From positions 1 through 56,611 of the IMG/VR virus record IMGVR_UViG_3300018063_000015: a DNA stretch of 56,611 nucleotides; one strand, given 5' to 3'. The position numbers and the translations under genes are program-made. Below the pieces are notes generated by a model. That model made no database searches, was not told the origin of the DNA, and worked only from the letters and a program-made list of their open reading frames with translations. Shown one piece after another: positions 1 to 45,721 of this stretch. The first letter of the stretch is position 1, and every line of letters begins with the position of its first letter. Source of the stretch: a virus.

Positions 1-884
1 ACGTGCATAACTTGCATACTGTTCTCGAGCCATATGTCATTGACTCTAAATGCATCACGTGCACTTACATATGCCTTCTTATGCTCAGGCGTAAAGTTAA
101 CTCTAACGAAGTTGTTGATTATCTTTGGTAGATACAGCCCAACTTCATCATAAGTACATCTACGTCCGTAGCGATCCATTAAGCGCTTTAGCAGTGTCCC
201 ACGTTGACCATATACTTCCGTGCCGTAGCGTGAGGTATACGTTTGACAATAGGTGTTGATGAATTGCCAATAGCTTGTAAATGTTAATGGATCTATGATA
301 CTAAGCTGCATGAATAGATCATCAGCTTCCTTCATAATAGGTGTACCTGTCAGCAAAAAGACACGCTCACTAGCATGTGCTAATGCTTTAGCTGCACGTG
401 CTTGCTGTGACGACCTATTACGAAAGTGGTGTGATTCATCATATATCAAAGTATCAAATTCAGGGAATTGAAACTTGAGATCCTTACGTGTTGGCACTTC
501 ACGTGGTCCTAAAACACGATTGAAGCGCAACATTTGATGATTGAAGATAGTCCACTTAGCACGTTCTGCTACGTTGAGTGCACCCTGACGGTTGTTTCGT
601 GTACCAGATGCTAGCACTACACTATCATCTGGGAATTGTGCACGGATTTCATCCCACCAATGTTCTACAAGGTATGAGGGACAGGCTATACCTATGCTAT
701 CACCGTCGGCGGCTGCCATCATGGCACTAAGCGTCTTCCCAAGCCCTGGAGGATGTGCTATGATTGCTTTCTTCTTGTCACGCAAAAACTCAGCATCTTC
801 CCACTGATAGGGTCTGGGAGTTTGGTTGAGCTTGTCTGAATCAAACTCTTGCTGAATCGTAAACGTAGGAGATTCAGCTATCAT
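1..884 (-). CDS. SNF2/DEAD-like superfamily 2 helicase, N-terminal part (cut by window edge)
   Basis: This leftward gene starts with ATG at 884 and runs off the left edge, so about 294 codons are visible. It reads as the first RecA-like domain of an SNF2-type ATPase: a Walker A loop PPGLGKT near residue 45, motif II DESH near residue 150, and a motif III-like LTGTP shortly after. Such proteins use ATP to translocate on or remodel DNA, and phage versions usually sit with replication and recombination genes. Its ATG overlaps the stop of the upstream gene as ATGA, which suggests coupled translation. The C-terminal helicase domain is not in the window. Family assignment is firm; the exact role is inferred. 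Confidence 0.85.
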   Translation of the reverse strand, partial: MIAESPTFTIQQEFDSDKLNQTPRPYQWEDAEFLRDKKKAIIAHPPGLGKTLSAMMAAADGDSIGIACPSYLVEHWWDEIRAQFPDDSVVLASGTRNNRQGALNVAERAKWTIFNHQMLRFNRVLGPREVPTRKDLKFQFPEFDTLIYDESHHFRNRSSQQARAAKALAHASERVFLLTGTPIMKEADDLFMQLSIIDPLTFTSYWQFINTYCQTYTSRYGTEVYGQRGTLLKRLMDRYGRRCTYDEVGLYLPKIINNFVRVNFTPEHKKAYVSARDAFRVNDIWLENSMQVMH

Positions 885-1192
885 TGTGTTCTATAGCTTC
901 TAGTAGCATACAATTCTATGGAATATGTTCCAGGCTCAAACTTCCATTTACTATCCCAAGATATCACTTGTGCATGTAACCTTAAATCGATTTTCCACAT
1001 CGTACGGCCAATTTCAGAGGTACGAATTGATACATAGCTTTCACTAGAGCTAACTTCAGCAACCCTGAATTTATCCTTGGCAGCAAGCGTTAGTGGACAG
1101 CATTGCGTAATTACGTAGGGCTCAACGTGCTCAGTGCGTATCCTATTTGCTTCTTCGATATGATCAAGTGTTACTGTTATTTGCTCAATCAT
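881..1192 (-). CDS. Small protein, divergent member of a three-copy phage family
   Basis: The 103-residue product starts at ATG 1192, chosen because AGAGGA lies just upstream; a longer reading from 1249 has no such signal. The N-terminus (ITVTLDHIEEANR, then CCPLTLAAKD) resembles two other genes in this window at 2643-2897 and 51516-51770, which carry VTQDHI or VTQEDI followed by ECPVALAI or QCPVALAI. The shared core is a VT-x-D/E-x-I stretch followed by C-P-x-x-L/A-A. The family is recognisable among phage small proteins but I know of no function. The start overlaps the upstream stop by 4 bases and the stop overlaps the helicase start. Confidence 0.75.
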   Translation of the reverse strand: MIEQITVTLDHIEEANRIRTEHVEPYVITQCCPLTLAAKDKFRVAEVSSSESYVSIRTSEIGRTMWKIDLRLHAQVISWDSKWKFEPGTYSIELYATRSYRTQ

Positions 1193-1338
1193 TGCATCCT
1201 CTGGTTGTCGTTGATTATTTGCTCTAAGCACTCTATAGCCTCTTTGCAACCCTGATGCTTGTCTATTTCATACAACGTTTGACAGACGCTTATGAATCTA
1301 GCTAGCTCTTTCTTTGAAAGTTTAGGAACTAAGTGCAC
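1189..1338 (-). CDS. Hypothetical 49-residue protein (GTG start)
   Basis: A short frame from GTG 1338 (beginning MHLVPKLSKKELARF) to TGA 1189 fills the gap between two neighbouring genes. A GAAG-type ribosome-binding sequence precedes the GTG. The stop overlaps the next ATG in an ATGA, the junction style used throughout this operon. The product is charged and probably helical with two cysteines. No family recognised. Confidence 0.55.
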   Translation of the reverse strand: MHLVPKLSKKELARFISVCQTLYEIDKHQGCKEAIECLEQIINDNQRMQ

Positions 1339-1529
1339 TTCACTTCTTCTAGACGCACCATTTTATCAGTATCCATATATAGTTCTAAAACTGTATCGTT
1401 AAACAATATACCTCGAGAATTCATGACATTTATCCACGAACTTGCCATAGCAATAGCTTTATCATATGTAATATCATCACTGTCTATTGTTAACCACACT
1501 TTTACAGAGAGTCCCATTTTAGCATACAC
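1329..1529 (-). CDS. Hypothetical 66-residue protein
   Basis: Starts at ATG 1529 with GGAAGG five bases upstream, overlapping the preceding SWIM-type gene by 28 bases. A second ATG at 1517 is possible. The product (VKVWLTIDSDDITYDKAIAMAS) looks like a small alternating strand/helix protein. The pattern of an early strand, an aspartate-rich turn and a helix is seen in many phage accessory proteins. No function can be assigned. Confidence 0.6.
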   Translation of the reverse strand: MYAKMGLSVKVWLTIDSDDITYDKAIAMASSWINVMNSRGILFNDTVLELYMDTDKMVRLEEVKCT

Positions 1530-1789
1530 CTTCCGTGCTTTTGTGACGGTACCTCGATTACACTCGTCAGCGGTTGGCTACACACTAAGCATAACGGCAT
1601 AGGTTCTACGTTCAACGTTGGCAAGGGCAATGGATTTAACTGCGCTATTACTGGTAGCAGCTTTAGTTCCTTCGCTATTTCCACATGTTTGCACGTGCGG
1701 CGGAAGTAGAATCCTGGACATGAACAGTTACCATTGTCATCTATTACGTAGTATTTGCCCTTCTTATTAAAACTAGGAACTGTTAGCAT
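1502..1789 (-). CDS. SWIM-type zinc finger protein
   Basis: The 95-residue product opens with a C-x-C-P-x-F-x5-C-x-H pattern (CSCPGFYFRRTCKHVE, about residues 22-37), the signature of SWIM zinc fingers, which bind nucleic acid or proteins. A second possible zinc pair follows: C-L-V-C near residue 70 and H-G-R-C near residue 86. Standalone SWIM proteins are common in phages and usually cluster with helicases, which fits the SNF2-type gene 600 bases downstream. The start overlaps the upstream 49-residue gene by 17 bases. A DNA-binding accessory role is inferred. Confidence 0.75.
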   Translation of the reverse strand: MLTVPSFNKKGKYYVIDDNGNCSCPGFYFRRTCKHVEIAKELKLLPVIAQLNPLPLPTLNVEPMPLCLVCSQPLTSVIEVPSQKHGRCMLKWDSL

Positions 1790-1922
1790 TTATTTCGTCC
1801 ATATCACTGTCTTCTATTGTGCGCTTTTCCCACTTAATCCACCAATAGTATCCCATTACTTGCATGTCTGTAGTAGATGGAGCCGCTATTGGCCATAATG
1901 GAACTGTGTTAGGAAATTTCAT
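1773..1922 (-). CDS. Hypothetical 49-residue protein
   Basis: An ATG at 1922 overlaps the upstream stop in TAATG, and the frame runs to TAG at 1773-1775. The product contains a central aromatic patch (GYYWWIKWEKR) and an acidic C-terminus. It fills an otherwise empty interval between two genes in the same direction. No homology recognised; the junction structure is the main support. Confidence 0.5.
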   Translation of the reverse strand: MKFPNTVPLWPIAAPSTTDMQVMGYYWWIKWEKRTIEDSDMDEINANSS

Positions 1923-2140
1923 TAGTTATGGTCTCCGTATGCTGATTCTATTTCCTTATCACAGCCGTCACAATACCTTGATGGACCTTCATAGAAGATA
2001 TCACAATCTTCTATCGGTGGCTCGGCGTCTTGACTAGCACAACCATTGCACCACTCACTACCATCATGGCTATAGTACAACACTGGATACCCTTCTACAT
2101 TAGAGGGAAATAGATTGTCTACTTTAGCTGGAAGTTTCAT
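1922..2140 (-). CDS. Small cysteine-rich protein (zinc-ribbon-like)
   Basis: The 72-residue product has C-N-G-C near residues 31-34, a single cysteine near residue 46, and C-D-G-C near residues 57-60. This arrangement could bind one or two zinc ions. It starts at ATG 2140, overlapping the upstream 53-residue gene by 17 bases, and ends in a TAATG junction. Small zinc-ribbon proteins are unusually frequent in this operon. Function unknown. Confidence 0.6.
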   Translation of the reverse strand: MKLPAKVDNLFPSNVEGYPVLYYSHDGSEWCNGCASQDAEPPIEDCDIFYEGPSRYCDGCDKEIESAYGDHN

Positions 2141-2285
2141 TTTTCATAGCCTCTCTTGTGAGATACACGTTTTGACGCGCATCGTTTAGACGGTTAACAC
2201 TAGCAGTCATACCTAGATTCTCGTGATGTTTTTTTGCAGCTTTTAATTCACGCAGCGCTTTACGGTAGAGTGTAGCTGGTTTCAT
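2124..2285 (-). CDS. Hypothetical 53-residue basic helical protein
   Basis: The start is set at ATG 2285 because GAAGGAAC precedes it and it forms a TAATG junction with the upstream gene; a longer reading to 2384 would overlap that gene extensively. The product (MKPATLYRKALRELKAAKKH at its start) is rich in lysine and alanine and predicted to be mostly helical. No family recognised. Confidence 0.6.
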   Translation of the reverse strand: MKPATLYRKALRELKAAKKHHENLGMTASVNRLNDARQNVYLTREAMKNETSS

Positions 2286-2446
2286 TATAGTTCCTTCATC
2301 ATCTCGTCTATACACACTTTGCATAGACAGCCACCACGCTGCATGTTCCATACTACTTCGTGGAAAGCACCACAACTTGAACACCGGACTGGTACGTTAT
2401 ACTTGTACCAACGTGCACTTAAATGCTCAGCGTGCAATTCAATCAT
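2285..2446 (-). CDS. Zinc-ribbon protein, 53 residues
   Basis: The frame from ATG 2446 to TAA 2285 encodes a compact zinc ribbon: C-S-S-C near residues 22-25 and C-L-C-x2-C near residues 40-45. A GGGGGGAG sequence lies about nine bases before the ATG. The stop overlaps the next ATG as TAATG. Zinc ribbons of this size usually bind nucleic acid or adapt RNA polymerase, but no specific role can be claimed. Confidence 0.65.
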   Translation of the reverse strand: MIELHAEHLSARWYKYNVPVRCSSCGAFHEVVWNMQRGGCLCKVCIDEMMKEL

Positions 2447-2450
2447 ACTA

Positions 2451-2630
2451 CTACTCCCCCCAGTAATAATATTTATCTGTTCTTGCGAGCCAGAAAACTA
2501 CTTTCCACTTCCACAGCAGAAGAACTACAGCTAGATCATTTAACTCAACATCGTGCAATAGAGCTAATTGAAGTCCTCTCTCATAATCTGGAACAGTTAC
2601 GCTTAGACGGTTTTTAATAGCTAATCTCAT
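2451..2630 (-). CDS. Hypothetical 59-residue protein with hydrophobic C-terminal half
   Basis: ATG 2630 is preceded by AGGTGGAG at good spacing, so it is preferred over an in-frame GTG at 2642. The N-terminal third is polar; the rest contains LAVVLLLWKWKVVFWLA, which could be a short membrane segment or a buried strand pair. It lies between a conserved small gene and a zinc-ribbon gene in the same direction. Function unknown. Confidence 0.5.
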   Translation of the reverse strand: MRLAIKNRLSVTVPDYERGLQLALLHDVELNDLAVVLLLWKWKVVFWLARTDKYYYWGE

Positions 2631-2642
2631 TTTGAGCTCCAC

Positions 2643-2897
2643 CTAAAGCAAACGTGTGGTATCAAGACGAAACTTGAATGGCTTTACTGCATGACGTGAA
2701 TCTAAGCGTCGTATAAACCGTTGTACACTGCGTGGTGGTAGAAATCCAATGGATTTTGCGTGAAGTTTTATTTCATAGCGACCCACTACAACGGCTGGTA
2801 CAGTAATGGCTTCCTTTATGGCTAAGGCTACTGGACATTCTGTGCTTGACTTACGATAGCCACGGTCGATGTGGTCTTGTGTTACACTAATTAGCAT
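2643..2897 (-). CDS. Small phage protein, VTQDHI/ECPVALAI family
   Basis: The 84-residue protein starts MLISVTQDHIDRG and carries ECPVALAIKEA near residues 20-30, followed by a predicted strand and a helix-rich C-terminus (RSVQRFIRRLDS). It matches 51516-51770 in length and in the C-terminal pattern of F/I-I-R-x-L/F-D-S and a final P-F-x-F-x-L, and 881-1192 more distantly. AAAGGTAG precedes the ATG. Three related copies far apart in one genome suggest ancient duplication or repeated acquisition. Function unknown. Confidence 0.75.
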   Translation of the reverse strand: MLISVTQDHIDRGYRKSSTECPVALAIKEAITVPAVVVGRYEIKLHAKSIGFLPPRSVQRFIRRLDSRHAVKPFKFRLDTTRLL

Positions 2898-2947
2898 TTT
2901 GTGCTACCTTTGTTTTTGATTGCGCACTGAAGAGCCGTAGCTGTACA

Positions 2948-3787
2948 TCAAACTTGTACCACGCTACCACCTAAATGCTCAGTTTGCGACTTTACTTTAG
3001 ATTGAGCCCTCAAGGCATCCATGAACGTATCGAAACTAGAGAATCCAGCTTGCAAGAACGCCTTACATAGAACGCTGAGGGAATGTACGCCACCGTACTG
3101 TTGCACGAACGACGCAAACTGCTGTTGATTTGCACGTCCAAAGCAATCTATTAGGAGCTTGATTGTGTCAGTATCGGTATCATATGCTTCAGCTATCACC
3201 TCATAATAATCTTGCTCGCTGTCAGTATATGACTTGACGTTTGATGACCCACACAAGACGCAATACGCTGGGGTTATGAACGATGATGGCACTAGGGTCG
3301 TTATTCTAAACGTTGCTAGGCAATCCTTACACGTAATTGTCAGTCGCAGATTGTACTTCTGCATGGTTGAGGCTACTTTCTTATTTGATTGGTTATAGTT
3401 GGCTGCACGGTGCACCAGCGTTGTTGGCTTCAAACCTTTATCTTTGATCGTTGCTAGGAACGTTGTAAAGCTCACATGGTCCGATCGCTGGAATGCAGTA
3501 TATAGAAAAGTAGCTACGTCATATGGGAGATCATATGATGTAGCTATTCGCTCTATTCGATCACGTTGTGGGTCTATGTGTGGTATTGTTGGAACGCCAC
3601 ATTGTGGACAATGTGTCGGAATTGGAGCACTATCAGGCTGAACACTCGATATTTGAAATTGGCTACAACAATCTAAGCGCACGGTATCACTAGATAGTGC
3701 TGAGTCTGAATACTTATACGCCGTGCCGTGCCTTACTAGTGATAGGGATTGTTGCGTGATATTCCTCCCAGTTTGATGGCTCGACAT
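2948..3787 (-). CDS. Protein with two tandem zinc-ribbon/helical modules
   Basis: The 279-residue frame starts at ATG 3787; an upstream ATG at 3826 lies inside the likely promoter and is disfavoured. The protein contains two similar halves. Each begins with a cysteine pair region (HCPQCG near residue 60; CKDC near 150 with CVLCG near 175), then a segment IERIATSYD or YEVIAEAYD, then a helical stretch ending in SFTTFL or QFASFV. This is an internal duplication of a module of about 110 residues. Zinc-binding helical repeats suggest DNA or protein binding. No known family recognised. Confidence 0.75.
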   Translation of the reverse strand: MSSHQTGRNITQQSLSLVRHGTAYKYSDSALSSDTVRLDCCSQFQISSVQPDSAPIPTHCPQCGVPTIPHIDPQRDRIERIATSYDLPYDVATFLYTAFQRSDHVSFTTFLATIKDKGLKPTTLVHRAANYNQSNKKVASTMQKYNLRLTITCKDCLATFRITTLVPSSFITPAYCVLCGSSNVKSYTDSEQDYYEVIAEAYDTDTDTIKLLIDCFGRANQQQFASFVQQYGGVHSLSVLCKAFLQAGFSSFDTFMDALRAQSKVKSQTEHLGGSVVQV

Positions 3788-3796
3788 GCCTGATAC

Positions 3797-3826
3797 ATTA
3801 TACCACGCCCTAAAAAAATTCCGCAA
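3797..3826 (-). promoter_or_regulatory. Sigma70-like promoter producing a nearly leaderless mRNA
   Basis: On the minus strand TTGCGG (3826-3821) and a perfect TATAAT (3802-3797) are separated by 18 bases, with a T-rich spacer. The gene start at 3787 is only nine bases beyond the -10 box. Transcription would therefore start at or within a few bases of the ATG, leaving little or no 5' leader. This is a sequence-based inference. Confidence 0.55.
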
Positions 3827-4008
3827 GTGTAAATGGCAGGTTCTTTAGAAATCTGCCATCTCCATTAACGACTTCATTGACAAGGGCTAGTGTCTTACGA
3901 TTGGGGCGCACTTGCACGCCTTCACTCGACGGCTGGGCCGTATCGACTACTTAATAGGGTCGGGCGTTGGTTTTAACTAGCAAGCAGTCTCCAGCCCTGG
4001 TCCTTTTA

Positions 4009-4941
4009 TTACAGTGTGGGGCCATGTTGTAGAGTCTTTGTTGGACGTGTTACTGGCTTCAAGAACTCCAATCCTATAGCTTCTAGAACAGAACTAGTTA
4101 TACTTGTCTCTGTGAAGTTTCGTTGTGGTACTATTTCAAACCTGTGGGCTAAAACTATATACCTTGCTCTTGTTTCAATTGACAGTCTGAGGGGATGTGA
4201 ACTTTTCTTGAAGTCACGATCCATCCATTGCCAACGCATTCCTACATAGTCTCCTGGCTCTTGTGGTGGTCTAACATCTACAAAGTCGGAGTATGATAGT
4301 GTTTCTAGGTAATTCGATATTCCATAGGCTGCGTAGGATATCTTGCGTCTTGTGCCATCGCCCATTGGCTCTATATATCCATCCTCTAGCCCCATTGATA
4401 TTAACCTATTATGGGCAGGGCGTGATAGAGTATATGACAAAGTGTCCGTTAGATCCATTGGCACTAGTCTGTCAGGATCTACGTTACGCAATACTTCTGG
4501 TACAACTACGCTGGGAAAGCCCTGTAGTTTGTTGGGCCATGCTCCAGGTTGAATGAAGCCAAGGGCTACTGCGTTTAAGAAGTTGCTGATCGTGAAATAG
4601 ATTGTTCTATCCGCGAGGCCGTGAATGGTAGCTAATTCTACATATCGTGTGGTAGATGCTGTGACTAGATTTAGCATTACACTGTACTGATATGGGCGTC
4701 GTGCTATAACTTCTTCAAGCGACGATATAGTATACTTCTGTGGAACGTATTTTGATATCAGTCCAAGCAGTTCTATTGTTGGTGGTGGTTGTACTAGGGT
4801 GAATGATCGTTGTGCTAAATCGTTAACGAAATCGCTTAGGCCGTGTGCCCTACTACCCAGTGGATTTACGTAGCCCCCTTCCATCGCGTGTTTCAGGAGT
4901 GTTGTTCTCGTTGGCTTTAGCAAGTATAGGTGCAACCCCAT
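4009..4941 (-). CDS. Probable DNA-binding regulator with repeated HTH-like segments
   Basis: The 310-residue product contains repeated segments. LLKHAMEGGYVNPLG followed by AHGLSDFVNDL (about residues 15-45) resembles LISMGLEDGYIEPMG followed by AYGISNYLETL (about residues 182-220). Two further segments share TRYVELA or ARYIVLA and end in LGFIQP or LEFLKP. The A/G-x-E-x-G-Y pattern followed by a helix pair is reminiscent of bacterio-opsin-activator-type helix-turn-helix units. It is the second gene of the leftward operon next to the control region, where phage regulators often lie. It overlaps the upstream gene by 89 bases, so a start downstream of 4941 is possible. The regulator role is inferred. 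Confidence 0.55.
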   Translation of the reverse strand: MGLHLYLLKPTRTTLLKHAMEGGYVNPLGSRAHGLSDFVNDLAQRSFTLVQPPPTIELLGLISKYVPQKYTISSLEEVIARRPYQYSVMLNLVTASTTRYVELATIHGLADRTIYFTISNFLNAVALGFIQPGAWPNKLQGFPSVVVPEVLRNVDPDRLVPMDLTDTLSYTLSRPAHNRLISMGLEDGYIEPMGDGTRRKISYAAYGISNYLETLSYSDFVDVRPPQEPGDYVGMRWQWMDRDFKKSSHPLRLSIETRARYIVLAHRFEIVPQRNFTETSITSSVLEAIGLEFLKPVTRPTKTLQHGPTL

Positions 4942-5248
4942 AGGTGTCCTTGCCCTCCTTAATTGTTAGCAGATTGTGCGTTAAGACTTCTACGATTGCA
5001 CTTTGTAGACTTTGTGTTGATGTAGCTGGAAAGATCATGGACATCCAAGGTTTAGCCCACGGCCAATCAATACCTTTTTTTGCTACCCTTGTCTTATGAT
5101 TTATTATTGGTGAGCGAATAGGACGTGGAGATGGTTCATATTCTGTATTAAGTAATATGTTGAGAGCTTGTGAAAGCGTACATTGATACTCTAACATGAT
5201 TAGGTTTAACACTCTCGACGCTGTAGCTGATATGTTAAGCATTGTCAT
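4853..5248 (-). CDS. First gene of the leftward operon, possible regulator
   Basis: The start is placed at ATG 5248 because GGGAGG lies about nine bases upstream and a TATACT promoter element lies just beyond that; the longer reading to 5374 would run through the promoter. The 131-residue product begins MTMLNISATASRVLNLIMLE and continues with a predicted helix (LSQALNILL), then a basic middle and a polar tail. The next gene begins inside its last 90 bases. Its position suggests an immediate-early or autoregulated protein. No family recognised. Confidence 0.6.
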   Translation of the reverse strand: MTMLNISATASRVLNLIMLEYQCTLSQALNILLNTEYEPSPRPIRSPIINHKTRVAKKGIDWPWAKPWMSMIFPATSTQSLQSAIVEVLTHNLLTIKEGKDTYGVAPILAKANENNTPETRDGRGLRKSTG

Positions 5249-5268
5249 TGGACTGACCTCCCAGCTAA

Positions 5269-5308
5269 AGTATACCACAGATGGTGGAACATTTTTCCGA
5301 AATGTTAC
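5269..5308 (-). promoter_or_regulatory. Promoter with overlapping inverted-repeat operator
   Basis: The -10 box TATACT lies at 5274-5269 on the minus strand. No good -35 hexamer exists 16-18 bases upstream. Instead, that region holds an inverted repeat at 5286-5308 on the plus strand, with arms GGAACATTT and AAATGTTAC around TTCCG, matching at 8 of 9 positions. A poor -35 overlapped by a dyad suggests control by an activator or repressor. Confidence 0.45.
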
Positions 5309-5336
5309 AACAAATTGGGTATTGGGGTATGGGTTT

Positions 5337-5457
5337 CGAATTTTTCGGTCCGAAATTCTACGGGGGTATCTCACATACCACTATTCTATAATTTATATAT
5401 TAATTGTATTAATCTTCCTAGTATGTTTTCCCTACAGATTTTCGGACCAAAAATTCA
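5337..5457. repeat. Inverted repeat pair flanking an AT-rich core
   Basis: A 22-base element at 5337-5358, centred on TTCGGTCCGAA and itself nearly palindromic, recurs in opposite orientation at 5437-5457, centred on TTCGGACC. About 18 of 22 positions agree. The 78 bases between them are very AT-rich around TATAATTTATATATTAATT (5386-5404). This looks like paired protein-binding sites around a melting or promoter region. Confidence 0.5.
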
Positions 5458-5673
5458 CCAAAACATAGCACAATACATATTGGCTATCAATACCGCCATC
5501 TTGTGCGGGTAATCGCGTGCAAGCGGGGCGACAATGGACTTTAACTATGTGCAAGGGTAACGACTATAACAAGGTGCTACGTTAAGCACTCAACTAAGGC
5601 CCTCTGCTTTGTACTCCGAAATATATCATCTTTGATACATTTTGTAGTAGGACATATGTTCTCTCATATCATC

Positions 5674-5740
5674 AATAAGACACGCCTAATAAGACACGCC
5701 TGTATTTGTATTAATAAGACACCCCTAATAAGACACCCGT
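5674..5740. repeat. Four tandem copies of a 14-base repeat
   Basis: The unit AATAAGACACGCCT occurs at 5674-5687 and 5688-5701. After an 11-base gap the variants AATAAGACACCCCT at 5713-5726 and AATAAGACACCC(GT) at 5727-5740 follow. Direct repeats of this size upstream of replication or early genes are typical of iterons or cooperative operator arrays. No gene covers the stretch. Confidence 0.7.
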
Positions 5741-5741
5741 A

Positions 5742-5982
5742 GGTTAGCTGGCTGGTTAGCTTAGGTAGCGCTGTACGCAAAGTTTCGTCTAAACTAACCC
5801 ATTAGCTTAGTCTATACTAACACATTAGTTTAGTCTAACCTAACCTCGGAGGTTAGACTATACTAACTTCAATGATTAGTCTATACTAATAGGTTAGTTT
5901 AGCCTGCACTAACTCGCGAGGTTAGTATAGGCTAACTCGTTAGTAGAGACTTTACTAATCCGTGAGGTTAGCCATGCTAACT
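5742..5982. repeat. Array of about nine imperfect palindromes (GTTAG...CTAAC)
   Basis: Imperfect dyads with arms (G/A)TTAG and CTAA(C/T) recur near 5804, 5827, 5851, 5874, 5893, 5920, 5940 and 5967, for example GTTAGACTATACTAAC and ATTAGTCTATACTAAT. Spacing is 19-27 bases, near two helical turns. Related half sites (GGTTAGC) begin at 5742. The sequences between arms vary, so this is not a simple tandem duplication. A multi-site binding region for a dimeric protein, or part of a replication origin, is the likely meaning. Confidence 0.7.
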
Positions 5983-6119
5983 TTACTATCAGCGATTGCT
6001 TATGATGCTATCAGAATAGTCTTATAGTAAATGAGCGGCTATGATAGGTTATGAGTAGATGAGTTTCTAGGCATACCTGCTAGGATGTGAGTGTAGGCAG
6101 TTAACTGAATAAGCGATCC

Positions 6120-6505
6120 ACAATCGAATATCCCCTTGAAGAGTCACCTGGGTCGGACGTGAGGCAGCTTTACTGCTAGGGCGCATACCAGGGTACGGAG
6201 GCTAGTAGGGGGGGAAAGCGTAACAGGTAGCCAGAGGCAGTGAGACTCCGCGCGCAGTGCAAGCGGGTAACTGGCTACCTTAGAGCACAAGTAAGGCTAC
6301 TCTACAGGCGGTATCAGACAGTAAGTCTGGGCGGATTGACGCTGACCGTTTCAACGCTGTACGTTGCTAGTCACTACACACAAGTACCACGGATTGCACC
6401 GTAGTCACGGGCAGGGAACGTTGACGTGCTAGGGCCACTACAAGCAATGGGCGCAATCACCTAAAGTATCTTCAGCGGTCTGATACCGCCTATCGAGTAG
6501 CTTTG
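6120..6505 (+). ncRNA. Candidate large structured RNA upstream of the rightward early genes
   Basis: About 390 bases with no plausible gene contain long perfect pairings. GGCGGTATCAGAC (6307-6319) pairs with GTCTGATACCGCC (6478-6490), and the stem is extended by GCTACTC (6296-6302) with GAGTAGC (6495-6501), closing a 206-base domain. Inside it lie CAACG/CGTTG (6352-6366) and CTAG-CAC/GTG-CTAG (6367-6431) stems. A 5' domain has GGTAGCCAG (6226-6234) pairing with CTGGCTACC (6271-6279). The 3' end abuts the ribosome-binding site of the next gene. It could be a trans-acting phage RNA or a regulatory leader. I cannot match it to GOLLD, ROOL or another named class by eye. Confidence 0.55.
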
Positions 6506-6523
6506 CTAACAGGAGAGGGAACA

Positions 6524-6574
6524 ATGGAAATCTTCGTCGTTCTACTCGCGATCGCGTTCCTGTTCACAACGTGA
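6524..6574 (+). CDS. 16-residue hydrophobic peptide, possible leader peptide
   Basis: A strong AGGAGAGGGA ribosome-binding sequence precedes ATG 6524, and the frame encodes MEIFVVLLAIAFLFTT before TGA 6572-6574. The peptide is almost entirely hydrophobic and could span a membrane. It follows directly on the large structured RNA candidate and ends five bases before the next start. It may be a small membrane peptide or a translated leader coupling the structured RNA to downstream expression. Confidence 0.45.
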   Translation: MEIFVVLLAIAFLFTT

Positions 6575-6578
6575 CGTG

Positions 6579-6788
6579 ATGTTCAATCAACATCCCACCA
6601 CGTTCGACGTTCCAGGTCCAGCATGGGATAACCCATATTGGGACAGTTACGATGCCACCATTAGAGTAGCTGACCTGCTTCTAGGATTGCCTGTACGTCT
6701 CGTCGAGGCGATGATCCTAGAGCAGGATGGCTACTCCGTGGATGACGTGCTAGCAATGATTAGCGTGGAAGGAGAACTAGCAAAATGA
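6579..6788 (+). CDS. Hypothetical 69-residue acidic protein
   Basis: Starts at ATG 6579, with an in-frame GTG at 6576 as alternative. The product has an aromatic, proline-rich N-terminus (FDVPGPAWDNPYWDSYD) and helices typical of a small binding domain (LVEAMILEQDGYSVDDVLAM). The stop overlaps the next ATG in ATGA. It belongs to a run of very small genes between the control region and the terminator at 7840. Function unknown. Confidence 0.65.
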   Translation: MFNQHPTTFDVPGPAWDNPYWDSYDATIRVADLLLGLPVRLVEAMILEQDGYSVDDVLAMISVEGELAK

Positions 6789-6943
6789 GTAAACGTCAAT
6801 GGCATCAATACCATTGGCTAGCCGAGCAGTTAGAACGTATTGAAGCCTTGCTACAAGCTGGTGATGTTGAGACTGCTAAGCGGGCGGTAATCAACGCCCT
6901 TGTGCAGGCACGCACTTATCGTGCAGCAGAACTAGAGCTATGA
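6785..6943 (+). CDS. Hypothetical 52-residue helical protein
   Basis: The ATG at 6785 overlaps the upstream stop in ATGA, and GGAGAACTAG lies upstream. The product begins MSKRQWHQYHWLAEQLERIE and continues with LLQAGDVETAKRAVINALV, two amphipathic helices. Such helical hairpins can dimerise. The stop overlaps the next start. No family recognised. Confidence 0.6.
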   Translation: MSKRQWHQYHWLAEQLERIEALLQAGDVETAKRAVINALVQARTYRAAELEL

Positions 6944-7074
6944 TGATTAGCGTCGGAGCATACCCAACGCGGTATGGTGGTCGCAAGGTGAGAATGTATG
7001 TCTTTGTGACCATCAAGCAAAGTAGCTTAGTCGGTAAGGTACTGACATGGCTATTCAGATGGGCAATGGAGTAA
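6940..7074 (+). CDS. Hypothetical 44-residue protein
   Basis: ATG 6940 overlaps the preceding stop. The product begins MMISVGAYPTRYGGRKVRMY and ends with a tryptophan-rich helix (VLTWLFRWAM). It is basic and hydrophobic and could be a small membrane-associated protein. Support comes mainly from junction structure and position in a tight gene run. Confidence 0.45.
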   Translation: MMISVGAYPTRYGGRKVRMYVFVTIKQSSLVGKVLTWLFRWAME

Positions 7075-7076
7075 CA

Positions 7077-7265
7077 ATGCGTGAACTATACAAGGGTATC
7101 AGGCGTGGTACGCTGGTAGAAATCGTTTCTGCTAACGCCTCGCGCGTAACGTTCTGCTGCGCGACTGTTCCCACCTCCGTCAAGCTATCCATGCCGCGCA
7201 AGCAATTCCTGTCGGCGTTTCGTGTCACAACCGTGGGAATTGTTCCACGGCGTATGGTAGACTAA
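7077..7265 (+). CDS. Hypothetical 62-residue basic protein
   Basis: ATG 7077 is chosen because GGAG lies six bases upstream and the preceding gene ends at 7074; a frame extension to 7047 overlaps that gene. The product begins MRELYKGIRRGTLVEIVSAN and continues with strands reminiscent of a small beta-barrel. It carries a CC pair and many basic residues. A nucleic-acid-binding role is possible but unproven. Confidence 0.55.
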   Translation: MRELYKGIRRGTLVEIVSANASRVTFCCATVPTSVKLSMPRKQFLSAFRVTTVGIVPRRMVD

Positions 7266-7319
7266 TAGTAGGCCAGGAGAATACGCCGCAAGCTGAATAG
7301 GGGTTAGCTACCCGTTATG

Positions 7320-7341
7320 AAGTGTCCAGTGTCCAGTGTCC
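7320..7341 (+). repeat. Triplicated 7-base tandem repeat before a gene start
   Basis: AGTGTCC is repeated three times in tandem upstream of the gene that starts at 7372. It could be a slippage-prone tract or a binding site. No other copies were noticed nearby. Confidence 0.6.
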
Positions 7342-7371
7342 AGCGACCACAAATTCGATAGGAGAATCCAA

Positions 7372-7830
7372 TTGTCAAAGACTGCTAACGTTCCCAGCGA
7401 GGCCGCTCCGTTTGACGGATCGTACGTACCGTTCAAGGACGGTAAGGTTGATACCGATGTCAAGTGGCGCGCCGATGACGGTACGCTTATGCACTACAAT
7501 AGTGAGGGCGTAGCCCTCGCCGTTGTGTTTAGCATAAGCGCCTCCTGTTCCGAGCCCATGAACGACCTAATCGACTCTGCTCTACGTGACTTCAACGACG
7601 GTAAGAAAAAGGAAGATCAGTCCAGTAGAGCCGAGTGGATACGTGTTGTAGTAGCCGACAAGATCGGCTATGATCTGTCGCAAGAGCCCGAACGCGAGCG
7701 CGGCAGTGGACTGGTAGTCTATCGCGAGAAGGTGGCGAAGGCTACAAAGACTCACGATGCACTAGTATCCGTGCTTGACAGTAATCCTGAACTGGCAGCT
7801 ACGCTGAAAGCTCTTGGCATCGAGCTCTAG
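7372..7830 (+). CDS. Hypothetical 152-residue protein (TTG start)
   Basis: A TTG at 7372 is favoured because AGGAGA lies seven bases upstream; an in-frame GTG at 7336 has no ribosome-binding sequence. The product (from MSKTANVPSEAAPFDGSYVP) is mixed charge. A middle segment SSRAEWIRVVVADKIGYDL looks like an extended helix, and a C-terminal helix ends LAATLKALGIEL. It is the largest gene in the rightward early cluster and is followed directly by a strong hairpin, suggesting high expression. It could be a small regulator or host-takeover factor, but no family is recognised. Confidence 0.65.
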   Translation: MSKTANVPSEAAPFDGSYVPFKDGKVDTDVKWRADDGTLMHYNSEGVALAVVFSISASCSEPMNDLIDSALRDFNDGKKKEDQSSRAEWIRVVVADKIGYDLSQEPERERGSGLVVYREKVAKATKTHDALVSVLDSNPELAATLKALGIEL

Positions 7831-7839
7831 AAGGGACTA

Positions 7840-7874
7840 GGCGAGGGGAGTAGCTAACCACTACTCCCCTCGCC
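7840..7874 (+). terminator. Perfect 14-bp hairpin after the early cluster
   Basis: GGCGAGGGGAGTAG pairs perfectly with CTACTCCCCTCGCC around a seven-base loop, ten bases after the stop of the preceding gene. No U-tract follows, so it may be a transcript-stabilising or attenuating hairpin rather than a classical intrinsic terminator. Confidence 0.6.
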
Positions 7875-7881
7875 GTCCTCC

Positions 7882-7968
7882 ATGGTAGTGTATCGTAACA
7901 GTCGAATGGGCGATGGTCGAGCAGTATGGCTACTGCGCCTAGCAAAGCTACTAGGATGGGTTAGCTAG
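7882..7968 (+). CDS. Hypothetical 28-residue basic peptide
   Basis: The frame from ATG 7882 encodes MVVYRNSRMGDGRAVWLLRL and a short tail, ending in TAG that overlaps the next GTG. It lies immediately after the hairpin at 7840-7874. It is basic and amphipathic. Reality rests on the overlap junction only. Confidence 0.35.
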   Translation: MVVYRNSRMGDGRAVWLLRLAKLLGWVS

Positions 7969-8141
7969 TGCCACGCAAGCGTAAGGCTAAGGCTTTCAGC
8001 CTATGGCGAGCGTACCGACTGCTAGGGATGCTCAATACGTTGAGCATTCTACTGTCGGGTAACCCCAAGAGGATAGCTCGCCATTTCCTTCGCAAGTATC
8101 TGGTCAAGCGTAGTGGTCGCCTATTCAAGAATGGGAGATAA
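7968..8141 (+). CDS. Small very basic protein, 57 residues
   Basis: The GTG at 7968 overlaps the upstream stop (TAGTG) and GGATGGG lies upstream. The product starts MPRKRKAKAFSLWRAYRLLG and contains LSGNPKRIARHFLRK, giving a strong positive charge. Small basic proteins with a similar SGNPKRIAR segment occur in actinobacterial mobile elements and phages, from memory. They probably bind nucleic acid. Function not established. Confidence 0.6.
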   Translation: MPRKRKAKAFSLWRAYRLLGMLNTLSILLSGNPKRIARHFLRKYLVKRSGRLFKNGR

Positions 8142-8314: not shown

Positions 8315-8384
8315 ACTTGCTTGTGCAAACAACTAAAATATTTGTTTGCACAAGCAAGTAACTTATTTGTTTGCGCACGCAAAT
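8315..8384. repeat. Perfect 18-bp inverted repeat plus a third related copy
   Basis: ACTTGCTTGTGCAAACAA (8315-8332) and its exact complement TTGTTTGCACAAGCAAGT (8342-8359) flank a nine-base AT loop. A third related element ATTTGTTTGCGCACGCAAAT (8365-8384) follows, itself a palindrome. The shared core is TTTGTTTGC-R-CA-M-GCAA. It may be a second transcription barrier or an operator cluster for the late operon. It lies in a gene-free stretch. Confidence 0.7.
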
Positions 8385-8698
8385 AAAAAATTTCTCATTT
8401 GTCTATTTTTTTGTGAAACGGACCTCCCTTTATAAAAAAAGCAAAATTCCCTAAACACACTATATCAACAATAATAAATCCCCTCTTTATAGAAAAAACG
8501 AATTTTGAAAAACTGACCATATTAACAACAAGCTAGTACCCCTGAAAAAGACACTCCTTCGGTTCCTCCCATAATATGGTATATTCAATGTAGGCGCTGG
8601 GAAGCTGCGTCCATAGCAAATTTGTGGCCAATAAAGCATAGGATAGTGTGTAATCGTTGTCACACCAGCGTGAACGGTAGGTTATATCATAACAGCCA
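8385..8698 (+). promoter_or_regulatory. Gene-free AT-rich leader of the structural operon
   Basis: This 314-base stretch has no credible gene. It begins with A/T runs, including two TTTATA-type elements near 8432 and 8486. Near its middle is a possible promoter with TTCGGT (8558-8563) and TATATT (8580-8585), spaced 16 bases apart. The remaining about 110 bases before the terminase gene may be an untranslated leader. The promoter call is weak because the -35 match is poor. Confidence 0.4.
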
Positions 8699-9142
8699 GT
8701 GGATTTGTGTAAAGTGCTTCAAGTTGTTGACGACCCACAAGAAATAGAAGAAGCAATCATCACGTTTGCTGCTGCTAAGGGCAACATCCCTCTAGCTGCA
8801 GAGCGACTACACATACCACAAACACTACTCGTATCGTTAATCAGCAAGGACCAGGAGCTACTACTTCAACACTTGAAAATAATGGCCATCATCAATACTT
8901 TTGAATCACTAGGCACAGCCCATAACAACTTAAAGGTAGCCATACCCAACATGGAACCTTATGAGCAGGCTAAGACATACACAGCACTGCTTCAAATAGC
9001 AGAATCATTGACTCATGCACCACCACCTGCTGCAAGCAGCCATGTAAATATTCTACAGATCATGCAAGCGCTGCCGGTTGATGCACGCGAAGCCCTTACC
9101 TTTCTATTGAAGGACGGCCATGACAACGGCCATTCAGAATAA
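8699..9142 (+). CDS. Probable terminase small subunit
   Basis: The 147-residue product (GTG start) lies immediately upstream of the large terminase and overlaps it by 23 bases. Its N-terminal part has a helix-turn-helix-like pattern KGNIPLAAERLHIPQTLLVS (about residues 28-47), typical of small terminase DNA-recognition domains. A helical middle region could mediate oligomerisation. The assignment rests on position, size and the HTH; sequence similarity alone is too weak to prove it. Confidence 0.65.
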   Translation: MDLCKVLQVVDDPQEIEEAIITFAAAKGNIPLAAERLHIPQTLLVSLISKDQELLLQHLKIMAIINTFESLGTAHNNLKVAIPNMEPYEQAKTYTALLQIAESLTHAPPPAASSHVNILQIMQALPVDAREALTFLLKDGHDNGHSE

Positions 9143-11606
9143 AGAAGAAGCACTAGCTGCTTTAGCACGTTACGTACGTGCTAATACTCCTACTCCTCCA
9201 CGTATTCCTAGCTTTAAAGATTGGGCAGAGTCTAGTTTCTGGATACCACCAGATAGTACAGGCTCTACTCCACACTTAATACCTCTTGTAGAGCATCAAC
9301 CTATTATTGTGAATTATGCCCTTAATCCTGAGAATGAAATAACAACCATTATCTATAGTGCACCAAAAAAATCAGGGAAGACAGCAATAGCAGCTGCAAT
9401 GGCTAGATACATAGCAGAGACTTTTGGTCCATACTCAGAAGTATTCTGCCTAGCTAATGATATGGAACAGGCGCGTGGTCGTGTGTATCAAGCTGCTGTG
9501 CGATCGTTAGAGTTAGATCCTAGATACAACGCTGCTAAGCGTGAAATTCCTGGTTATTGGAACGTTGTACAACGTGAAGCAATACATACTCCTTCTTCAT
9601 CTATACTTCGTGCAGTGTCATCGGACTATAAGGGCGAAGCTGGTTCAAATCCAACAGCTACAGTGTGGTGTGTGGCAGGCGAAACGGAAATTCTAACAAA
9701 GCATGGTTGGATTGTCGCAACAGAATTAACAGAGAATGATGAAGTTGCTACATTGTCATCACGTGACACAGTACAGTATCAAAAGCCTACTGCTGTTAAC
9801 AAACAAGTATACAGCGGTAATATGATTAGATTTAATCATCGAAGAGTAGAATTTTTGGTTACACCCAATCACAGAGTATATGGTAAGTTTCTAGGCAATA
9901 GCAGAGACAAAGCGAAAGCAAAATGGTCGTTTGAATATGCTGATGTATTACTAAAAAGATATTCATCTGGCTACATAAAATCTGATGCTGCAGCCTATGA
10001 ATCCACCGATTATACAATTGTAACTCCAGAATTAGCAGCATTTTGGGGATATTATCTGTCAGAAGGTTGCTATAATGAAAACGGCTTTGTAACAATAGCC
10101 CAGTCCAAAGCAGCAAATCCAAAAACGTATTTTACGATTAAAGCAGTCATGGCATCTGTATTTGGTGAAAATAATATAAGACCAGATGCTAGAGGGCAAA
10201 AAGTATCAGTTAAGGAAGAAGTATTTGGCAGTGCAATTAACATAATGCAAGGTAAGCAAAACGTACGGTATGTTCCTGATTTAATAATGAATGCTCCAAC
10301 GGATATGCAAAGAATATTTTTGGCTGCATATCTAGAAGGTGATGGTTGGTTTGCTGGTAAAGAAGGTTTTCAATTTGAGACAATCTCATTAAAGCTAGCA
10401 AATCAATTGATGCAAGTTGGCCTCCATTGTGGATATGTACCAAGATATATGGGTAATAGAAAACGTGGAGATAATTACCAAGTAATACACAGGTGCTCGC
10501 TATCTACTGGTCCAATTTATTGGCAGCGCAGCGGTGGACATGGTACTTTTGAAGAAGAACACTATGAAGGCACTGTGGTATGTCCATCATTGCCAAATGG
10601 AATATTTTTCATTAGATACAATGGAAAATGTTGTTGGACAGGAAATAGTGAATTGTGGGGCTACAGCCTTGAAAAAGACCTTAGATTGTGGGAGGAACTA
10701 ACTCCAGTACCAACTAGGCGCAGTTTACGCATTGTAGAGACATACGCTGGGTATTCCGACGAGCCAGGCCCTTTATGGGATTTGTGGCAATTAGCTAAGG
10801 AAGGACAACAACTAACTGTTGACGACATAGCCTGGCCATTCCCAGGCCCAGTGCCAATATGGCATAACAAACGTGCACACCTCTTTGCTTACATAGATCA
10901 AGGCCCACTTGCACGCAGGATGTCTTGGCAAGATGAAGCCTATTATGAAGAACAAGCTAACACACTCTCACCACAAGCTTACCAGCGCCTTCACTTTAAC
11001 TATTGGACAACAAGCACTACTCAGTTTGTACCTATAGAGTGGTATAAGGCTTGCTTCGATCCAGCAATGCCACTGTTGGATCGAAATAAGATGTGTGTAT
11101 TAGGTGTAGACGCCGCTGTCAGTAGTGACTGTTGTGCAGTGTCATTAGTTTCCCGCAATGACAAAAGTGATCGTGAAGTAGATCATCATTTTAGTTTAGT
11201 GTGGGCACCACCAGCAGGTGGCACGATAGACTATAGTGAAACTTTAGAACCAGCTATACGTGAAATTTGCAGCAAATATAACGTAGTTGAAATAGCCTAT
11301 GACGCTTTTCAATTACATTACATGATGACTAACTTTAGGAACGAGGGCTTGGCCTACGTTTACTCGTTTAGCCAAGGTAACGATAGAGCTAAAGCAGACA
11401 AGCAGCTCTACGACATGATGAGAGACAGACGATACCACCACAACAACGACCCAAACATGGAGGAACACCTAAAGAACTGTGCAGCAAAGCAGAGCAAAGA
11501 TGAAGATACCAAAATGAGAATAGTTAAGAAAGCTAACGATCGTAAGATTGATGTCGTAGTGGCTGATTCAATGGCAGTTAGTGAATGCCTCCGTTTGCTT
11601 GTATAA
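9120..11606 (+). CDS. Terminase large subunit interrupted by an intein
   Basis: This ATPase/nuclease packages DNA into the prohead. The 828-residue precursor has a Walker A-type loop SAPKKSGKT (about residues 80-88). The Walker B region is split: residues TATVW (179-183) are followed by an intein and then SELWGY (from 510), so splicing restores VWSELWGY with the catalytic glutamate. The C-terminal nuclease domain shows LGVDAAVSSD, VEIAYDAF and VVVADSMAV, with acidic residues of an RNase H-like fold. The spliced protein would be 502 residues, normal for this family. The function is well supported. Confidence 0.95.
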   Translation: MTTAIQNKEEALAALARYVRANTPTPPRIPSFKDWAESSFWIPPDSTGSTPHLIPLVEHQPIIVNYALNPENEITTIIYSAPKKSGKTAIAAAMARYIAETFGPYSEVFCLANDMEQARGRVYQAAVRSLELDPRYNAAKREIPGYWNVVQREAIHTPSSSILRAVSSDYKGEAGSNPTATVWCVAGETEILTKHGWIVATELTENDEVATLSSRDTVQYQKPTAVNKQVYSGNMIRFNHRRVEFLVTPNHRVYGKFLGNSRDKAKAKWSFEYADVLLKRYSSGYIKSDAAAYESTDYTIVTPELAAFWGYYLSEGCYNENGFVTIAQSKAANPKTYFTIKAVMASVFGENNIRPDARGQKVSVKEEVFGSAINIMQGKQNVRYVPDLIMNAPTDMQRIFLAAYLEGDGWFAGKEGFQFETISLKLANQLMQVGLHCGYVPRYMGNRKRGDNYQVIHRCSLSTGPIYWQRSGGHGTFEEEHYEGTVVCPSLPNGIFFIRYNGKCCWTGNSELWGYSLEKDLRLWEELTPVPTRRSLRIVETYAGYSDEPGPLWDLWQLAKEGQQLTVDDIAWPFPGPVPIWHNKRAHLFAYIDQGPLARRMSWQDEAYYEEQANTLSPQAYQRLHFNYWTTSTTQFVPIEWYKACFDPAMPLLDRNKMCVLGVDAAVSSDCCAVSLVSRNDKSDREVDHHFSLVWAPPAGGTIDYSETLEPAIREICSKYNVVEIAYDAFQLHYMMTNFRNEGLAYVYSFSQGNDRAKADKQLYDMMRDRRYHHNNDPNMEEHLKNCAAKQSKDEDTKMRIVKKANDRKIDVVVADSMAVSECLRLLV
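9669..10646 (+). mobile_element. Intein with LAGLIDADG homing endonuclease in TerL
   Basis: Residues 184-509 of the precursor form a 326-residue intein. It begins with Cys in CVAGETEILTKHGW (block A) and has block B-like VTPNHRVYG. It contains two LAGLIDADG-type motifs, LAAFWGYYLSEGC and FLAAYLEGDGWF. It ends GKCCWTGN before Ser+1. The penultimate residue is Gly instead of the usual His, a variation seen in some active phage inteins. Insertion in the Walker B motif is a classical site, since loss by imprecise deletion would kill the host protein. Activity is inferred. Confidence 0.93.
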
Positions 11607-44798: not shown

Positions 44799-45178
44799 TT
44801 TCCTGTAGCCTCGTAATAAAATAAATGAGCCAAGGCATCAACTTCATGGACCATAAACTTAGTTTTCAAACCTTTAAGATGATCGTGTGCTCTTTGTTGC
44901 ATAGGCTTTCTATCTCCTGGCATATGTCTAATACACTTTACTCCAAAGTAGTGTGCAAGTGCACATATAGCTCCCACCAGCTCTACAGTATATAGACCGT
45001 ATTTGTCGATTGTAGTTCCGAAAGGCTTGAACTGTTCCACAACGATTACATCGGCAAATCTTATATTATCAGCCAACCACTGATGCTGGTGTTCCTTGAC
45101 CACGCACGTATGTATATCACCATTGTCATTCTTTGCAGCACCCATCGTAAGTCCAGGGTCGAGGGCTAAAACAACCAT
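44795..45178 (-). CDS. RuvC-like Holliday junction resolvase
   Basis: The 127-residue product has the RNase H-like fold of phage RuvC proteins: LALDPGLTMG (first D), VIVVEQF (E), then VGAICALAHYFGV and HEVDALAHLFYY (last D). It cleaves branched DNA at the end of replication or packaging. It overlaps the HNH gene by 13 bases. Confidence 0.85.
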   Translation of the reverse strand: MVVLALDPGLTMGAAKNDNGDIHTCVVKEHQHQWLADNIRFADVIVVEQFKPFGTTIDKYGLYTVELVGAICALAHYFGVKCIRHMPGDRKPMQQRAHDHLKGLKTKFMVHEVDALAHLFYYEATGK

Positions 45179-45657
45179 GATCTGTTTTTCACTATATTAA
45201 ACATGGTACTTTCACTTACATTGTATAGCCTTGATAATGGTAGGACTCCATATTGTCGATGTCCAGCTATATATATGGATCGTATCTTCTTTATTTCTTC
45301 CTTTGAAAATTTGCCTCTTGGGTACCACCATCCTTTATTTGCTATTCTTGCATCTGTGGTGTTCTCTTTAGCTGTTCCTACATACACATGTTGCTCGTCA
45401 ATTCTAACACAATTCTCGGTATTGCATTTATGGTTTAACTGTTTTCCTATTGGAATTGGGCCATAATCTAATTCATAGGCAAGAATATGAGCAGATATCC
45501 ATTTTCTTTTTACATATAGTCTCCCATATCCTTCTCGCATAGAACCATGATATAACCAACATAAATCAGTTTTTGTTACATGCCAATAAAACCTTTCTCT
45601 AAGTAAATTTAACTCTTTAGCAGTTAAATCCAGAGCTAGAATCATCCAAATAGCCAT
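45166..45657 (-). CDS. HNH homing endonuclease
   Basis: The product has LNHKCNTENCVRIDEQHVYV with GTAKENTTDA, the HNH_3 pattern with zinc-like cysteines. The C-terminal part is a DNA-binding helix pair (LSRLYNVSESTMFNIV) as in free-standing homing enzymes. The start could be ATG 45657, ATG 45645 or GTG 45717. It sits between the resolvase and an Arc-like gene, an insertion typical of mobile endonucleases. Confidence 0.8.
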   Translation of the reverse strand: MAIWMILALDLTAKELNLLRERFYWHVTKTDLCWLYHGSMREGYGRLYVKRKWISAHILAYELDYGPIPIGKQLNHKCNTENCVRIDEQHVYVGTAKENTTDARIANKGWWYPRGKFSKEEIKKIRSIYIAGHRQYGVLPLSRLYNVSESTMFNIVKNRSWLF

Positions 45658-45721
45658 GAAATATAAAATGCCATAAATATCACAATTCCAATCATGGTTA
45701 ATAAAACACACCCACACCCTT

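What the first reader, a model, noticed from the sequence alone, without database searches (positions are those of the whole stretch)
6120..6505. Candidate large structured RNA between divergent operons
Two long perfect stems (13 bp plus 7 bp closing a 206-base domain, and a 9 bp stem), with nested smaller stems, fill a stretch without a gene. Its 3' end is ten bases from a strong ribosome-binding site. Large structured RNAs occur in phages (GOLLD, ROOL), but I see no match by eye. It could be a new trans-acting phage RNA or an early-gene leader.
Basis: partly seen in the sequence, partly recalled or inferred. Interest (0 to 1): 0.75.

Follow-up and report, generated by a model that had tools for sequence, protein, structure and literature searches.

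The report
Long-range leader clamp in phage operon
Just upstream of a small-gene operon, this uncultured phage carries two 30-base stretches that can zip into one long RNA helix around about 160 otherwise unremarkable bases; its three closest relatives have similar helices, unrelated in sequence, beside their own small genes, so it looks like a recurring mRNA-processing or protecting clamp rather than an elaborate new phage RNA.

Summary
The stems are real. Arms 6290-6319 and 6478-6507 pair over 30 positions without a gap (26 Watson-Crick, 2 G-U, 2 mismatches). Helix score is 52; the best of 300 shuffles of the intergenic region is 33. But that helix is the only unusual thing: the enclosed 158 bases fold worse than shuffles (z +2.0), and 6120-6289 is ordinary (z -0.6). 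There is no Rfam match and no sequence relative of the RNA, so covariation could not be tested. An ornate GOLLD/ROOL-like RNA is not supported.

A survey of 74 capsid relatives showed that the three nearest relatives (sharing the small-terminase-like gene) carry five more such helices. Arms are 20-33 bp, interiors 80-516 nt, sequences unrelated, all lying between small genes of the operon next to the same divergent control region. In four of the six, a Shine-Dalgarno and start codon follow the 3' arm within 13 nt. In one, the 5' arm starts at a predicted promoter. In two relatives the helix encloses homologous genes although the arms share no sequence.

Best reading: a long-range mRNA leader helix, cut by host RNase III (like pre-rRNA processing stems) or protecting the downstream message. 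RNA-level function is inferred, not shown.

The parts
6290..6319 (+). 5' arm of the long-range helix
   Evidence: Pairs with 6478-6507: 26 WC + 2 GU of 30; duplex -45.7 kcal/mol; mean pair probability 0.91 in context
6478..6507 (+). 3' arm of the long-range helix, ending 3 nt before the Shine-Dalgarno
6320..6477 (+). Enclosed 158 nt, no gene, folds worse than shuffled sequence
   Evidence: z +2.0, 197 of 200 shuffles fold at least as well; no ORF beyond short frames
6225..6280 (+). Smaller hairpin with 10-bp perfect stem AGGTAGCCAG/CTGGCTACCT
   Evidence: the region 6120-6289 as a whole is not more stable than chance
6120..6224 (+). Presumed upstream part of the leader; no significant structure
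6511..6515 (+). Shine-Dalgarno AGGAG
   Evidence: sequence
6524..6574 (+). 16-codon ORF MEIFVVLLAIAFLFTT, first start after the helix; stop 1 nt before the GTG (6576) of the next ORF
   Evidence: sequence
6576..7830 (+). Small-gene operon downstream (ORFs 6576-6788, 6785-6943, 7047-7265, 7336-7830), no known families
5781..5964 (.). Array of TTAG-N6-CTAA palindromes at 23-bp spacing in the divergent control region (likely protein-binding sites)

Best explanation
The feature is a long-range RNA helix in the 5' leader of the rightward small-gene operon. Shown: two arms of 30 nt that pair almost perfectly, a weakly structured interior, a 3' arm that stops just short of a ribosome-binding site, and five similar helices (unrelated sequence) in the operon gaps of the three closest relatives. 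Inferred: the helix forms in the transcript and acts as a processing/stability clamp. Host RNase III (present in the two Chloroflexota MAGs that carry capsid relatives) would cut the long double strand, releasing the enclosed segment and leaving the downstream message with a defined 5' end a few nucleotides from its Shine-Dalgarno, as long-range stems do around 16S and 23S rRNA precursors. If it is not cut, the same helix would shield the message from 5'-end-dependent decay. In relatives the enclosed segment can itself carry a pair of small genes, so what is conserved is the clamp, not its contents.
For: Helix far beyond chance. Four helices score >=50 in about 0.7 Mb, none in shuffles: the window, G006 17981-18009/18488-18516, and G007 15066-15093/15492-15519 and 15559-15591/16108-16140; G005 33307-33326/33427-33446 and G006 19895-19914/19995-20014 follow at 46-48. 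All lie in gaps between small genes. SD plus start begins 3, 2, 13 and 12 nt after the 3' arm in four of six; background 5% of operon positions, binomial 8e-5 (post hoc). G006 and G007 helices enclose homologous genes (73% aa identity over aligned columns), yet the arms are unrelated. In G006 19895 the 5' arm starts 7 nt after a TTTGCA-18-TATAAT promoter-like site, so it would be the transcript's 5' end. Only the helix, not the interior, is unusual. Helices of 20-33 bp suit RNase III; both MAGs carrying capsid relatives encode it. Pre-rRNA precedent: PMC8708148.
Against: No transcript data. No alignable homologue, so no covariation test. The window's helix sits in the rightward unit whereas the relatives' helices sit in the leftward early operon, so positions are similar but not strictly syntenic. 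No promoter-like site lies just upstream of the window's 5' arm. RBS accessibility hardly changes in silico when the 5' arm is blocked, so translational switching is not supported. G-U versus A-C mismatches on the operon strand are 7 versus 4, no real strand signal. 95 other loci from wider kin lack the arrangement.
Confidence: 0.45

Rival explanations
1. A DNA element: an invertible segment (inverton-like switch) or relic of a transposable element (MITE) whose terminal inverted repeats are the two arms.
For: Inverted repeats of about 30 bp flanking about 160 bp directly upstream of an operon resemble invertible promoters. A MITE-like element with 52-nt inverted ends exists in wider kin L065/L072.
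Against: No serine or tyrosine recombinase in the window or G005-G007, with controls ringing. Each helix has a different arm sequence, two different ones in the same genome. Homologous gene pairs keep the same orientation between unrelated arms. No target-site duplication visible. Arms are 87% identical as DNA, with four non-Watson-Crick positions, where inversion would homogenise them.
Confidence: 0.2
2. A discrete trans-acting or structural phage RNA of a new family, spanning roughly 6120-6507.
For: Gene-free stretch, higher G+C than the genome (0.51 against about 0.42), terminal helix closing a domain, additional 10-bp stem.
Against: Interior folds worse than chance and the 5' part is ordinary. 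No Rfam match. No relative anywhere searched. No terminator before the SD on the + strand.
Confidence: 0.15
3. The interior is the decayed remnant of a gene pair of the G006/G007 type; the helix is only a leftover of that layout.
For: A 14-base identity TGCTAGGGCCACTA in the same orientation inside both the window's and G006's helix, reached by 1 of 1000 shuffles; it encodes LGPL of gene B in G006.
Against: One short match found post hoc; G007 and others give nothing convincing. The helix itself is intact, which a leftover would not be.
Confidence: 0.08
4. Part of the phage replication origin or control region: an inverted repeat acting on DNA through protein binding, together with the 23-bp array.
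For: Lies in the divergent, skew-switching region next to a palindrome array.
Against: Arms 158 nt apart next to a Shine-Dalgarno; in relatives such helices lie deep in operons and enclose genes.
Confidence: 0.1

Closest known systems
RNase III processing stems of bacterial pre-16S/pre-23S rRNA
   Same: Complementary sequences far apart in one transcript form a long double strand enclosing a segment (PMC8708148).
   Different: Here the enclosed segment is non-coding leader or small genes, not rRNA; cleavage not shown.
RNase III sites of T7 early mRNA (R1.1 and others)
   Same: Phage operon, double-stranded element between small genes that would set mRNA ends (PMC8708148).
   Different: T7 sites are local hairpins (own knowledge); these close over 80-516 nt.
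5' leader stem-loops that stabilise mRNA (ompA type)
   Same: Helix at or near the 5' end, Shine-Dalgarno left just downstream (stem-loop protection reviewed in PMC7509114).
   Different: Far longer helix with a distant partner; stability effect untested.
GOLLD and ROOL RNAs
   Same: Phage-encoded, non-coding, long terminal stem.
   Different: No Rfam match, no extensive conserved secondary structure, no tRNA near by.
Invertible DNA switches (invertons)
   Same: Inverted repeats of about 30 bp around a short segment upstream of an operon.
   Different: No recombinase in the four phages, different repeats in each case, fixed gene orientation.

Membership tests
GOLLD / ROOL / other Rfam large RNAs | Score at or above the covariance-model gathering threshold | tested here: not met
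   No family at gathering score in the window; only microRNA-model noise at relaxed E-value
GOLLD / ROOL / other Rfam large RNAs | Extensive structure throughout the RNA | tested here: not met
   Interior z +2.0, 5' part z -0.6
New conserved structured RNA family | Covarying base pairs across homologues | not testable with these tools
   No alignable homologue found
RNase III processing stem | Long-range double strand of about 20 bp or more in one transcript | tested here: met
   30 positions, 28 paired, -45.7 kcal/mol, pair probability 0.91; that both arms lie in one transcript is assumed, not shown
RNase III processing stem | Likely host encodes RNase III | tested here: met
   Both MAGs with capsid relatives match PF14622 above cut-off; the host of this phage itself is not known
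RNase III processing stem | Cleavage within the helix in vivo | not testable with these tools
   Needs RNA-seq 5'-end mapping
Invertible DNA switch | Recombinase encoded by the element or genome | tested here: not met
   PF00239 and PF00589 absent from the window and G005-G007; a host enzyme is not excluded
Invertible DNA switch | Both orientations seen in reads or relatives | not testable with these tools
   No reads available; no close relative
MITE | Target-site duplication outside the inverted ends | tested here: not met
   None visible at 6283-6289 and 6508-6514

The most novel reading that the evidence does not exclude
A sub-clade of phages, by kinship probably of Chloroflexota, organises its small-gene operons into segments each clamped by its own long-range RNA helix of 20-33 bp. 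The enclosed content varies (non-coding or a gene pair) and the arms are replaced over time with pairing kept: a pre-rRNA-like cutting or insulation scheme applied to phage mRNA.
Probability: 0.3. Interest if true: 0.65.

Novelty: new variant of a known kind. Interest (0 to 1): 0.42.

Why it matters
If the clamps are cut, they would be an mRNA counterpart of rRNA processing stems in phages of a little-studied bacterial phylum. They would also be a case of RNA structure kept without sequence conservation, which sequence- and covariance-based searches miss.

Tried and rejected
Rfam at gathering and relaxed thresholds: nothing credible. tRNA/tmRNA: none. DNA and protein matches in INPHARED: none. 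First terminase scan with the intein-bearing protein: none. Stem-pattern scan of viral contigs: none. Scans with the 164-aa operon protein and with gene B gave no new kin; the small-terminase scan gave one further, irrelevant locus. A first gapped helix scan was too permissive in G+C-rich DNA and was replaced by a strict one. Helices in G011 (27137), G008 (18653) and L121 lie inside coding frames and were discarded. An apparent homology of the motif TAGTGGCCCTAGCA turned out to be the coding sequence of gene B in G006/G007. Translational switching through RBS accessibility was not supported.

Full report
What is there. The window is a 56.6-kb virus record with leftward genes at 1-5374, rightward genes from 6524 to 41393 and leftward genes again to the end. 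The stretch 5375-6523 between the divergent units is gene-free. AGGAG begins 3 nt after the 3' arm and is followed by ATG at 6524, a 16-codon ORF and a chain of small ORFs.

Is it more than chance? Yes for the helix. Its score of 52 compares with a maximum of 33 in 300 shuffles of the intergenic region. The 218-base domain has z -4.2 with none of 200 shuffles as stable. But all of that comes from the helix. The 158 enclosed bases fold worse than 197 of 200 shuffles and 6120-6289 is ordinary. The strongest folding signals near by lie elsewhere: the repeat array at about 5801-6000 and the coding stretch 6601-6800. So 'large ornate RNA' is not the right picture.

Relatives. Neither Rfam nor phage genomes, viral contigs or kin contain a sequence relative of the RNA. 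The capsid protein led to 74 related viral loci and two Chloroflexota MAG contigs, Anaerolineae and Ardenticatenales. Three of these phages, G005, G006 and G007, also share the small-terminase-like gene next to the control region, and their replication genes are largely collinear with the window's.

A shared layout without shared sequence. A scan for long-range helices over the window and eleven related contigs found four with score 50 or more and none in three shuffled copies: the window, one in G006 and two in G007. G005 and a second one in G006 follow at 46-48. Inspection puts all six in gaps between small genes; others of similar score were inside coding frames or low-complexity DNA. In four of the six the Shine-Dalgarno begins 2, 3, 12 or 13 nt after the 3' arm, where 5% of operon positions would do so. 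This test was framed after seeing the cases, so its P value of 8e-5 is a guide only. G006 (17981) and G007 (15066) enclose homologous genes (73% identity over aligned columns) while their arms are unrelated: pairing kept, sequence not. In G006 (19895) a strong terminator is followed by a TTTGCA-18-TATAAT promoter-like site and then, 7 nt later, by the 5' arm, so that arm should be the transcript's 5' end. In G007 a further 12-bp stem (15008-15019/15545-15556) encloses the first helix. 95 other loci of wider kin do not show the SD-adjacent arrangement convincingly.

How it most likely works. Shown: complementary arms, their position, their recurrence. Inferred: the arms pair in the mRNA and the helix is cut by host RNase III, as complementary flanks of pre-rRNA are (review PMC8708148, which cites complementary sequences 1700 nt apart), or it protects the message when not cut (stem-loop protection, PMC7509114). 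Both MAGs with capsid relatives encode RNase III; the four phages searched do not. Folding does not suggest an RBS switch.

Rivals. A DNA switch or transposon relic would also give inverted repeats. Against it: no recombinase in the four phages, different arm sequences each time, conserved gene orientation and no target-site duplication. A discrete trans-acting RNA is not excluded but has no positive evidence beyond the gene-free stretch. A 14-base identity between the window's interior and gene B of G006 could hint at a decayed gene pair but is weak.

Limits. No expression data, no alignable homologue, hence no covariation test. The window's helix is in the rightward unit and the relatives' in the leftward early operon, so the positions match in type but not strictly in synteny. 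Searches (the two MAGs; first four kin) found no DNA match, but as their outputs warn, an empty answer there shows little.

Noticed in passing
window 5781-5964: Seven to eight TTAG-N6-CTAA palindromes at 23-bp spacing (consensus TTAGTCTATACTAA); folding z -8.6 on +. Probably an operator or origin array; only two more such sites elsewhere in the window.
   Followed up: partly
window 5671-5736: Paired 27-nt direct repeats ATCAATAAGACACGCCTAATAAGACAC beside the palindrome array.
   Followed up: no
window 9120-11606: Large terminase interrupted by what looks like an in-frame intein with a LAGLIDADG-like domain; terminase nuclease domain at residues 700-822.
   Followed up: partly
window 6001-8000: G+C 0.51-0.53 against about 0.42 for the rest; coding stretch 6601-6800 is unusually foldable on both strands, z about -6.
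   Followed up: no
window 8326-8393: 25-nt tandem repeat (CAAGCAAATAAAATATTTGTTTGCA) in a gap of about 870 bp upstream of the small-terminase-like gene.
   Followed up: no
window 45166-45717: HNH endonuclease ORF (HNH_3) next to the polymerase gene.
   Followed up: no
L072 4655-4923 and L065 4483-4751: Non-coding element with 52-nt imperfect inverted ends and possible AAAT flanks, MITE-like, downstream of the portal gene of a related phage.
   Followed up: partly
L012 3958-3980 and L013 1694-1716: TTATATGGTATACTGRGCC directly before an ATG in two related phages: a TATACT box a few bases from the start codon suggests leaderless transcripts.
   Followed up: no
L114, L115: Capsid relatives on contigs binned with Anaerolineae and Ardenticatenales MAGs, suggesting Chloroflexota hosts for this phage group.
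   Followed up: partly
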